Positions 11,423 to 54,300 of a stretch of 64,000 nt of DNA are shown here, piece after piece; positions within the stretch are counted from its first letter, which is position 1, and each line of letters begins with the position of its first letter. The position numbers and the translations under genes were made by a program. The notes beneath the pieces are model-generated. The model saw only the letters and a list, made by a program, of their open reading frames with translations, searched no databases and was not told the DNA's origin. Source of the DNA: Perkinsus olseni (Eukaryota; Perkinsozoa; Perkinsida; Perkinsidae); NCBI GenBank assembly GCA_013115135.1, contig JABANP010000260.1:1-64000 (forward strand), given 5' to 3'.

Positions 11423-13747
11423 ATGGCTGACGGTTGGCCCGCAAGTTCAGTGTTCAACTCCCGAGCACCCGGCTACGCCTTCGACGACATCATCCTCCTG
11501 CCGGGTCACATCTCCTTCGGCGTCGAGACTGTGGAGCTCGCTGGCCGCATTTCGAAGGACATCACAGTGAGTCTTTTGTAATTTCGTGGCGCGTGACGAT
11601 TTCTTCCTTGCCCCTTCAGCTGCGAACGCCCATCATCAGCAGCCCTATGGACACGGTGACCGAGGCGAAGATGGCGATCGCCATGGCCCTTCTCGGGTGA
11701 GCTGCTGCTGCTTGAATGCTTTTCGGATGATGACGTTCCTTTGCAGGGGTATGGGGGTTATCCATGGTAATATGACGACGGACGCTCAAGTGCAGGAGAT
11801 CCTCAAGGTAGGTCAACCTCTTTTGTGACATGCATGGGTCGACCTTGGATACCATCAGGTCAAGCGTTACGAGAACGGCTTCATCATGGACCCCTATGTG
11901 CTCGGTCCGAATAATACTGTCGCCGACGTCGATGAGATCAGGAGGGTAATTTCGTGGCGCAGTGACGAATTTTCTCAGGTACATTCCTGTACTGTAGGTC
12001 GAGGGGTTCTCCTCCGTCCCTATCACCCAGAGCAGCAGAATGGGCGGCAAGCTGCTGGGCATAGTCACCAGCCGAGACATCGACTTCATCGACGATCGCA
12101 CTACCCTTCTCAAGGACGTCATGACTCCGGCTAAGGACTTGGTGAGTATCTTTTCATTTTTGAAATGCCAGGATCGACCTCAGCTTAGTCAGTTTTTAAC
12201 GGAGGGAATCTTTGATCAGTGTGTTGACCATGGGTGATGCTGTTCAGGTTGTCGGGACCGAGCCGATCTCCCTCAACGAGGCGAACGACAAACTGCAGGA
12301 TGCCAAGGTGGGCAAGCTGCCCATCATCAACGGCGACTGGGAGCTGGTGGCTCTGATCTCGAGGGAGGATCTCAAGAAGAATAAGTAATTTCGTGGCGCG
12401 CGGTCATGAGTTTAGACCGAGGATTCTCATCAGGGACTACCCCAATGCGTCCAAGGATAAGAACAAGCAGTTGATTTGCGGCGCGGCCGTGCCGGTGAGC
12501 GTCCCTGCTACCTCGTACCATCTCTTGCACAACTCTCCTCAGATTCTCCCTGACATGGAGCTCCCTGCCCTCGAGGAGAGGTGCCGGCTGCTGGTCGAGG
12601 CTGGTGTCGATCTGCTGGTCCTCGACTCTCCTGATGGGGACTCGTCTGTCCAGGTGGAGTTGGTGAAGCGTCTTAAGGCTAAGTAGGGCACCTTTGTGCA
12701 TGCGTGCAAGTCTCGTACCACTCCTTCCCCTACAGACATGACAATGTTAACATTATGGCGGGAAATGTGGTATCAGTAAGACAAGCCAAGAGCCTCATTG
12801 ATGCTGGTAGTACACAGCCTCACCATCCATTCCTCTGGGCACCCCCCTCCCCCTTCATTCAGGAGCTGATTCCCTTAGAGTTGGTATGGGTTCCTCCTCG
12901 GTCGGTATTGGAGCTAGCATTACGGCTGTCGGTCGTGCCCAGGCCAGCGCCGTCTACCGCGTCGGCAAGTTCGCCCGGGAGTATGCTAACGTGAGAATGG
13001 AGGCCTCCGCCGCTGGTCGCTGCTTCAGTAGTGGTATCTTAGGTGCCCGTGGTGGCCGACGGTGGTATCCAGAACTCGGGTCACATTATGAAGGCTCTTT
13101 GCCTGGGGGCCAGCGCGGCTATGATGGGCAGTGGTTTGGCTGGTACTGATGAGGCACCAGGTGAGTGGAAGGTGGGGTGCACGCATGCGCATGCGTGCAA
13201 ATTTCGTACCATCTTTTTGGTAATTCGTCGTGCAGGTGACTACTATTATTCTGACGGAGTCCGCGTGAAAACCTACAGAGGAATGCACTCCTTCAATGCT
13301 GTCCGCGAGTGCTTCACAAATGCTGGCAAGGACGCTAGCCGACTCGACAGGCCTTTCGCTGCTCAAGGTAATGGTATCTGGTTCGATTCCCACGGGCGTC
13401 ACTTTTCCGCCTCTAGGCGTACAAGCAGCAGTTGTTGACAAGGGCTCAGTGAACTCTCTCGTGCCCTACCTCGTCCAAGGCTGCAGGCATGGCTTCCAGG
13501 ACCTCGGCGTCCAGTCGGTCACCCAGCTACATCACCAACTCGACGATGGTAATAATAACAGTGCGCATTTGGGGTCGCCGCGCGATGGCTCATAGGACCT
13601 CGGTCGTCGCATGACCCTTCGTGACCAGGTACTCTTCGCATGGAAGTCCGGTCTGGCTCAGCTATTAAGGAGGGAGGGGTCCATGACTTGGTCCGGCTGC
13701 CCGCTGGTGCTGGTGGTGGGATGGGCCGTGGACAGGGCAGGAACTGA
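11423..13747 (+). CDS. IMP dehydrogenase homologue lacking catalytic residues
   Basis: Fourteen exons splice cleanly with 13 GT-AG introns (48-106 nt) into a full-length IMPDH-like protein from ATG 11423 to TGA 13745. It has the N-terminal barrel (DDIILLPGHISFGVETVELA; SSPMDTVTEAKMAIAMALLG), CBS-domain segments (GFSSVPITQSSRMGGKLLGI) and the C-terminal barrel (HDNVNIMAGNVVSVRQAKSL; VADGGIQNSGHIMKALCLGA). IMPDH makes XMP from IMP, the committed step to GMP. Here the active-site loop reads RVGMGSSSVGIGASITAVGR. The cysteine that attacks IMP, and the Thr-Gln after it, are replaced. The flap Arg-Tyr pair aligns with Lys-Asp. The fold is clear; catalysis is unlikely by the known mechanism. Confidence 0.9.
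11567..11619 (+). repeat. IMPDH intron 1 containing F1
   Basis: F1 lies at 11580-11593, sense orientation, inside a 53-nt intron. Confidence 0.85.
11808..11858 (+). repeat. IMPDH intron 3, F2 long-form relative
   Basis: The intron contains GGTCAACCTC, TGCATGGGTCGACCTTGG and GATACC: the long F2 form read in reverse. Confidence 0.6.
11946..11997 (+). repeat. IMPDH intron 4 beginning with F1
   Basis: The donor is GTAATTTCGTGGCGCAG. The F1 element itself supplies the 5' splice site. Confidence 0.85.
12142..12247 (+). repeat. IMPDH intron 5, F2 long form
   Basis: The intron starts GTGAGTATCTTTTC and holds ATGCCAGGATCGACCTCAG, closely matching the intron at 58028-58075 in an unrelated gene. Confidence 0.75.
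12385..12433 (+). repeat. IMPDH intron 6 beginning with F1
   Basis: The donor is GTAATTTCGTGGCGCGCGG. This is the second intron of the gene whose 5' splice site is the element. Confidence 0.9.
12991..13042 (+). repeat. IMPDH intron 10 ending in an F2 motif
   Basis: The acceptor end reads GTGGTATCTTAG, so the AG of F2 is the 3' splice site here. Confidence 0.75.
13368..13416 (+). repeat. IMPDH intron 12 with a tRNA 3' end and T run (F4)
   Basis: A 49-nt intron containing GGTTCGATTCCCACGGGC, then GTCACTTTTCC: a tRNA B box, a 3' strand and a TTTT run. The PEX2 intron at 36152-36214 shares this arrangement. Confidence 0.75.

Positions 13748-54300: not shown

What the first reader, a model, noticed from the sequence alone, without database searches (positions are those of the whole stretch)
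11567..51626. F1: a 14-base element, AATTTCGTGGCGCG, recurs inside introns of unrelated genes in both orientations
Copies lie at 8316, 9708, 11580, 11948, 12387, 14657, 28879, 36310 and 51599. All fall in introns or likely introns. In sense orientation it can be the donor itself (GTAATTTCGTGGCG at 11946 and 12385). In antisense it sits at the acceptor (CGCGCCACGAAATT then 5-6 nt then the exon at 14657 and 36310). The 36-nt PEX2 intron is little more than the element. That is what intron gain by a very short mobile sequence would look like. Introner elements are established in several algal and protist genomes; this specific family is not known to me.
Basis: partly seen in the sequence, partly recalled or inferred. 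Interest (0 to 1): 0.92.

Follow-up and report, generated by a model that had tools for sequence, protein, structure and literature searches.

The report
Tiny repeat in Perkinsus short introns
A DNA sequence of roughly 20 letters is scattered through the genome of a Perkinsus protist and, in the part examined, lies far more often than expected inside very short introns of unrelated genes, which fits introns being made by tiny inserted sequences, although the insertion itself is not yet shown.

Summary
AATTTCGTGGCGCG occurs 8 times exactly and once with one mismatch in the window, and 1217 times in the 61.5-Mb genome against 1 for the reversed control. The host is a Perkinsus. In 291 kb of my own gene models, 61 of 90 copies lie in introns, 27 in intergenic DNA, 2 in exons. 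Introns of at most 60 nt hold 35 copies against 7.1 expected from local shifts, in both orientations. Three conserved IMPDH introns carry it.

The shared segment is only about 19-22 nt; the rest of each ~50-nt intron is unrelated. I found no consistent target-site duplication and no empty allele: 14 of 14 introns keep the copy in sister haplotypes. The copy is better conserved than its intron, so a DNA-level function stays open. Other words, such as GGAGCGAAG and a tRNA-3'-half-like sequence, show the same bias. An IMPDH paralogue with 12 short introns shares no position with the window's 13.

Best reading: a very short introner-like family, one of several.

The parts
8316..8329 (-). exact element; in a modelled 117-nt intron (8284-8400), sense of gene +, so antisense copy
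   Evidence: intron rests on the gene model alone
9708..9721 (+). exact element, sense, in a modelled 58-nt intron (9696-9753)
11567..11619 (+). IMPDH intron 1, 53 nt, holding the exact element at 11580-11593 (sense)
   Evidence: P. marinus IMPDH runs through the junction
11946..11997 (+). IMPDH intron 4, 52 nt; element at 11948-11961 directly after the donor GT (one mismatch); a 36-bp, 95% copy lies at C27:13872-13908 in what looks like an intron of another gene
12385..12433 (+). IMPDH intron 6, 49 nt; exact element at 12387-12400 directly after the donor GT
14619..14675 (+). 57-nt intron read by hand, with the exact element antisense at 14657-14670
   Evidence: sequence; missed by the gene model
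28850..28907 (-). modelled 58-nt intron with the element antisense (28879-28892)
36294..36346 (+). modelled 53-nt intron with the element antisense (36310-36323); a 36-nt alternative ending CTCTAG is possible
51533..51626 (-). modelled 94-nt intron with the element antisense (51599-51612)
11423..13752 (+). IMP dehydrogenase gene (copy A), 13 introns, three with the element

Best explanation
The element is a dispersed, very short repeat family of a Perkinsus genome: AATTTCGTGGCGCG plus a tail of about 5-8 nt (mostly TGAC, CGAC, CGGT, CGGG or GTGA forms), often followed by T. It works like an introner: copies landed in DNA without regard to coding status. Those in coding exons survive only as part of a short GT-AG intron (43-59 nt in the sample) that splicing removes without changing the protein; those in intergenic DNA and longer introns simply persist. 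Splice sites mostly come from outside the shared segment, in either orientation. Shown: family size, placement, orientation, intact coding sequence at the IMPDH junctions. Inferred: that arrival of the element created the introns, and any mobility. Unknown: where the 20-35 unrelated nucleotides of each short intron come from.
For: 1217 exact copies against 1 control, with a graded series of altered copies. 35 of 90 copies in introns of at most 60 nt against 7.1 expected (0 of 500 trials reach it); 2 of 90 in exons although exons are 45% of the bases; the pattern stays when each copy is replaced by random bases before gene prediction (57-61 intron, 30-34 short, 8-11 exon in six runs). 35 sense and 26 antisense. 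No 5' bias. Element introns are not longer than others (median 55 of 60 introns against 58 of 901), which speaks against insertion into ready-made short introns. The short-intron share (39%) is near the exon share of the bases (45%), as expected if exonic insertions survive as introns (inference). IMPDH copies A and B, 55% identical, share no intron position. A Na/H exchanger domain (Pfam) spans two antisense element introns of L032.
Against: Similarity stops after 19-22 nt; alignments between element introns have a median of 18 nt and a maximum of 29. No consistent target-site duplication; 5-mer excesses at scattered offsets are weak and uncorrected for many tests. No empty site in 16 joined-flank queries, of which only 6 had a sister copy, and 14 of 14 introns filled in sister haplotypes. 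The core differs less between haplotypes than its intron (2 of 252 against 38 of 706 sites; tail 2 of 143), which hints at a maintained function. IMPDH introns without the element are equally unshared with copy B, so that comparison does not single out the element.
Confidence: 0.5

Rival explanations
1. A functional, orientation-independent DNA-level motif (a protein-binding or chromatin site) that arises and is kept by selection inside existing short introns. The introns were not created by it.
For: Core and tail differ less between haplotypes than the rest of the intron: 2 of 252 and 2 of 143 against 38 of 706 sites (Fisher p 7e-4 for the core; about 0.035 after halving the expectation because copies were chosen for an exact core). 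Sharp left edge and degenerate right edge, as in a binding site. No target-site duplication, no empty allele.
Against: A binding site gives no reason for a five-fold excess in introns of at most 60 nt over local expectation, with other non-coding DNA near background; no bias to gene starts; correlated tail subtypes and a 36-bp match between introns of two genes look like copying. The constraint test rests on 14 introns, and one poorly aligned intron (L054) adds many of the intron differences.
Confidence: 0.27
2. An ordinary short non-coding repeat: copies arise anywhere, selection removes them from exons, and they pile up in introns by default. No link with intron creation.
For: Near absence from exons (2 of 90) and presence in intergenic DNA (27 of 90) and in introns above 60 nt (26 of 90).
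Against: Density in introns of at most 60 nt is 1.47 per kb against 0.45, 0.40 and 0.37 in middle introns, long introns and intergenic DNA; element introns are not lengthened; taking about 20 nt out of a 43-55 nt intron would leave less than most other introns have.
Confidence: 0.15
3. An RNA-level signal, such as a splicing enhancer or hairpin, used by a subset of short introns.
For: Mostly central position in short introns; sense introns of 40-60 nt fold slightly better than others (mean -11.0 of 21 against -9.3 of 386).
Against: Antisense copies are nearly as common (26 against 35) and fold no better than other introns (-9.05 of 14); most short introns lack the element; intergenic copies exist.
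Confidence: 0.05

Closest known systems
Introners (Gozashti et al. 2022, PMC9860276; abstract and outline, found passages and section 7 seen)
   Same: Short repeated sequences in introns of unrelated genes, both orientations; families with neither splice site of their own, and families without target-site duplications or inverted repeats, are described there; aquatic protist host.
   Different: Published families are found by intron similarity near both splice sites, with median lengths of 30-654 nt; here only about 19-22 nt in the middle are shared and no full-length similarity exists. The word Perkins- does not occur in that main text; its supplements were not seen.
Amoebophrya introner elements (Farhat et al. 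2021, PMC7789003; passages seen)
   Same: Related alveolate parasites; repeated intronic elements; no transposase inside.
   Different: Those are mainly non-canonical introns with inverted repeats of 8-20 nt and direct repeats of 3-5 nt at the borders; here introns are modelled as GT-AG and no direct repeats were found. The gene model allows only GT-AG, so non-canonical introns were not looked for, except that the three IMPDH introns are GT-AG.
MITEs and tRNA-derived short interspersed repeats (recalled)
   Same: Short, dispersed, non-coding, both orientations; a second word class in the same introns looks like a tRNA 3' half plus CATTTTT.
   Different: No inverted repeat ends or target-site duplication established for this element; no tRNA likeness of the element itself was noted.

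Membership tests
Introner | Copies in excess inside introns of unrelated genes | tested here: met
   61 of 90 in introns, 35 in introns of at most 60 nt against 7.1 expected; holds when the copies are replaced by random bases. Sample partly chosen for holding copies.
Introner | Introns similar to each other up to or near both ends | tested here: not met
   768 introns of at most 120 nt compared: 155 element-element pairs at E<=1e-5, but median alignment 18 nt and maximum 29 over the 416 pairs at E<=1e-3; best cover of both introns under 0.7.
Introner | Insertion leaves the mRNA intact (usual, not universal) | tested here: met
   Spliced IMPDH aligns through the three element junctions with P. 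marinus IMPDH and, without length change, with copy B. Tested for one gene.
Introner | Presence/absence variation at the same site, or demonstrable gain | tested here: inconclusive
   14 of 14 introns filled in sister haplotypes; no empty site in 16 joined-flank queries, 6 of them with a sister copy. Copy B of IMPDH lacks introns at all three sites but also lacks the introns without the element.
Introner | Target-site duplication and/or terminal inverted repeats (present in some families only) | tested here: not met
   No consistent duplication, anchored on splice sites or on the element. Inverted repeats were not tested formally.
Introner | Splicing shown by transcripts | not testable with these tools
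   No RNA data at hand.
Amoebophrya-type introner element | Non-canonical splice sites with inverted and direct repeats at the borders | tested here: not met
   IMPDH element introns are GT-AG; no direct-repeat signal at the splice sites of 60 element introns.
Regulatory DNA motif | Higher conservation than surrounding sequence | tested here: inconclusive
   2 of 252 (core) and 2 of 143 (tail) against 38 of 706 (intron); about p 0.035 for the core after correcting for choosing exact cores.
Regulatory DNA motif (promoter-proximal) | Bias to gene starts or first introns | tested here: not met
   Relative position as for other introns (KS p 0.82); first intron 2 of 54 against 71 of 721.

The most novel reading that the evidence does not exclude
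Perkinsus makes introns of about 50 nt through a process that inserts short units carrying one of several unrelated cores: this ~20-nt element, AGCGGAGCGAAGCG, a tRNA-3'-half-like sequence and others. It needs neither splice sites in the core, nor a fixed orientation, nor a target-site duplication, and it has changed intron positions so fast that two IMPDH paralogues share none. The shared cores would be below the 30-nt lower end of published introner medians and would escape whole-intron similarity searches.
Probability: 0.3. Interest if true: 0.82.

Novelty: new variant of a known kind. Interest (0 to 1): 0.62.

Why it matters
How introns arise is a long-standing question. If a core of about 20 nt is enough to mark newly made introns, screens based on whole-intron similarity miss such families, and Perkinsus, with many short introns, no shared intron positions in one paralogue pair and sister haplotypes in one assembly, becomes a place to catch the process. 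If the core is instead a conserved DNA site concentrated in short introns, that too would be unusual.

Tried and rejected
Chance: rejected. Gene model driven by the element itself: rejected by replacing each copy with random bases. Promoter-type motif: no 5' bias. Target-site duplications: splice-anchored none; element-anchored 5-mers gave 35 matches against 20.4 (s.d. 5.2) over all offsets and 9 of 90 against 3.5 at offsets 30-45 (2 of 200 permutations) among 45 tests, with no excess for 6-mers; I read this as no consistent duplication. Intergenic copies as missed short introns: not supported as a group (4 of 27 above threshold against 9.5% of the null; Mann-Whitney p 0.42), while copies in longer introns score somewhat above their null (p 0.005). 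Empty alleles: none. Of nine copies in L044, four were found again on C192 (1611, 4715, 4809, 6436); the one at 6831 could not be judged because the alignment stops at 6808; the other four were not looked at. Na/H exchanger relatives: only C568 at 28-43% identity, too weak to use. Viral contigs: AATTTCGTGGCGCGYGAC in 2 stretches, not followed up. Literature searches whose listings named no paper on this element: introner and intron gain with Perkinsus, Perkinsus genome and introns, introners with transposable elements, the core letters (12 of 112 papers listed), tRNA-derived repeats and dinoflagellates, Perkinsus with transposable elements. Listings are partial and supplements were not read, so absence from print is not shown.

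Full report
What was checked. The genome search gives 626 + 591 = 1217 exact copies in 61,483,535 bases in 968 contigs, against 1 for the reversed word. With one and two mismatches the totals are 2316 (control 5) and 3231 (control 147), so the family grades into altered copies. The genome holds 164 sites within two mismatches of the dinoflagellate/Perkinsus spliced leader, controls 0 (Perkinsus spliced leaders are described in PMC3101222, passages seen). The window's IMP dehydrogenase is 94% identical to one of P. marinus ATCC 50983; the exons of a second IMPDH on C138 match a protein named for P. olseni at 54-99%, seven of ten pieces at 85% or more. I take the host as a Perkinsus species, not identified further.

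Gene models. No annotation was at hand, so I wrote a splice-aware Markov gene finder, seeded with the hand-built IMPDH gene and long open frames and self-trained on 291,126 bases: the window, twenty 10-kb stretches and nine 3-kb stretches, the last two groups chosen because they hold copies. It predicts 961 introns (60 with the element, 901 without), with a typical donor and acceptor, and recovers 11 of 13 IMPDH introns exactly, though IMPDH was also in the seed. It allows only GT-AG introns of 28-450 nt and fuses some neighbouring genes, so single calls may be wrong; it missed the intron I read by hand around 14657. A Pfam Na/H exchanger domain (residues 190-464) spans two antisense element introns of L032 (residues 283 and 326), an independent support for two of them.

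Placement. Of 90 copies of the core ATTTCGTGGCG, 61 are in introns (35 sense, 26 antisense), 27 intergenic, 2 in exons, while the bases are 29.6% intron, 25.3% intergenic and 45.0% exon. The excess sits in introns of at most 60 nt: 35 copies against 7.1 (s.d. 2.4-2.5) when each copy is moved at random within 300 or 1000 bases, never reached in 500 trials each. Densities per kb are 1.47, 0.45, 0.40, 0.37 and 0.015 for introns up to 60, 61-120 and above 120 nt, intergenic DNA and exons. Replacing every 14-mer by random bases before prediction leaves 57-61 copies in introns, 30-34 of them short, 21-22 intergenic and 8-11 in exons over six runs. Intergenic copies as a group do not look like missed short introns, although single ones do, such as L037 3180. 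There is no preference for gene starts or first introns.

The shared unit. By position there is an abrupt left edge (the base before the element is A in 0 of 89 copies), an invariant centre and a tail of subtypes (27 TGAC, 15 CGAC, 14 CGGT, 9 CGGG, 9 GTG-, 5 CGAA, 11 other of 90) whose similarity fades by about position 21-22. One intergenic spot holds the unit in tandem with a 19-bp period, three units in one haplotype, one of them altered, and two in the other. All-against-all comparison of 768 introns of at most 120 nt, 45 with the element, gives 155 element-element pairs at E<=1e-5; over the 416 such pairs at E<=1e-3 the median alignment is 18 nt and the longest 29; no pair of any kind covers 70% of both introns. 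The nearest longer case is IMPDH intron 4 against C27:13872-13908, 36 bp at 95%, in what reads like an intron of another gene. So the introns are not copies of one another; they share a core.

Were the introns made by the element? For: element introns are not longer than others (medians 55 and 58 nt), so taking out about 20 nt would leave most short ones below the usual size; the coding sequence is intact at the three IMPDH junctions; random insertion with exonic copies kept only when spliced would put a share near 45% into short introns, and 39% is seen. Against or open: no consistent target-site duplication. Sister haplotypes, 93% identical over the main matches to C192 and C228, keep the copy in all 14 introns examined in 18 alignments, with one substitution in each of two. 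Sixteen joined-flank queries found no empty site, but only six of the sixteen had a sister copy in the assembly. Between haplotypes the core differs at 2 of 252 sites, the tail at 2 of 143, the 8 bases to the left at 11 of 144, other intron at 38 of 706 and exon at 22 of 861. Since copies were chosen for an exact core, the fair expectation for the core is about half the intron rate, which gives p about 0.035; the tail was not used for choosing. The counts come from few introns, some in two haplotypes, and one badly aligned intron (L054) adds many differences. This hints at constraint and keeps the regulatory rival alive.

Wider setting. IMPDH copy B (C138:77612-79863; exons set by hand with the P. 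olseni protein as guide) has 12 introns of 44-93 nt. Against the 13 of copy A, with proteins 55% identical over 504 aligned residues, none of the 12 scorable A introns has a B intron within 5 residues; A intron 7 falls in an alignment gap. This shows heavy intron turnover but does not single out the element, because introns without it are equally unshared. Other repeated words, picked after seeing them, are also enriched in introns of at most 65 nt over local shifts: GGAGCGAAG 16 of 44 against 3.6; TATCTTAGG 13 of 48 against 3.6; GGTTCGAAYCC 12 of 20 against 2.0; GCATGCGTGC 6 of 12 against 1.4; CCGGGGACC 5 of 12 against 1.1; GATCACGTGATC 2 of 4 against 0.1; TCGTACCA 4 of 17 against 1.4 (9 of 200 shifts reach it). 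TTGAGGAAATGCAAG (1 of 10 against 0.6) and CAGCGAAGAT (2 of 12 against 0.8) show little. AGCGGAGCGAAGCG occurs 384 times genome-wide against 0 controls. The GGTTCRANYCC class (64 places: 49 intronic, 10 intergenic, 5 exonic) has a consensus like a tRNA 3' half, AGGTCCC.GGTTCRANYCC followed by a variable stretch and GCATTTTT; its T-stem is not paired above chance. A 78-bp insertion carrying it is present in L046 and absent from C228, with GGTT on both sides, so a sequence of that class seems to have moved since the haplotypes parted.

Judgement. The family and its bias to short introns are real and strong within this sample. Origin by insertion, introner-like, is the best single explanation, at about even odds. 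Strict membership among introners fails on intron-wide similarity, and mobility of this family is not shown. No RNA evidence was available.

Noticed in passing
13368-13416 (IMPDH intron 12); L036 6849, L047 8858, L048 3099, L035 9213, L034 1797: Short introns that hold a tRNA-3'-half-like sequence (AGGTCCC.GGTTCGANYCC...GCATTTTT); 49 of 64 GGTTCRANYCC places are in modelled introns.
   Followed up: partly
L046:5392-5469 against L073 (C228:39015-39075): A 78-bp insertion with the same tRNA-like word, present in one haplotype and absent from the other, with GGTT on both sides, inside a modelled 339-nt intron.
   Followed up: partly
14030-14080, 48764, 60272 and other loci: GCGGAGCGAAG recurs in introns in both orientations (29 intron, 8 exon, 4 intergenic of 41); AGCGGAGCGAAGCG occurs 384 times in the genome against 0 controls.
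   Followed up: partly
11423-13752 against L070 (C138:77560-79930): Two IMPDH paralogues, 55% identical, with 13 and 12 short introns and no shared position among the 12 that could be scored.
   Followed up: yes
12683-12735 and 13161-13235: IMPDH introns 8 and 11 share GCATGCGTGCAA.T.TCGTACCA, another intronic word.
   Followed up: partly
C41, C268, C270, C871, C238, C596 of G000: Regularly spaced spliced-leader-like sites, apparently tandem arrays with periods of about 1 to 3.5 kb.
   Followed up: no
L047 8242-8434, L044 3918-4038, 10532, 18430, 56995 and elsewhere: A family of words built on GTATCTT (GTATCTTAGGT, GTATCTTTCGAC, GTATCTTGAGGT), some in tandem arrays with a ~24-bp period, some with a following AAGATAC that could pair.
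   Followed up: no
G000 contigs, first 100 listed places: Copies of the element are very unevenly spread: 13 on C20 within the part listed, 1 on the 364-kb C2, none listed on C3 or C4.
   Followed up: no
C5, C275 and C226 of G000: Three homologous versions of one region in the assembly at a few percent divergence, suggesting uncollapsed haplotypes or more than two copies.
   Followed up: no
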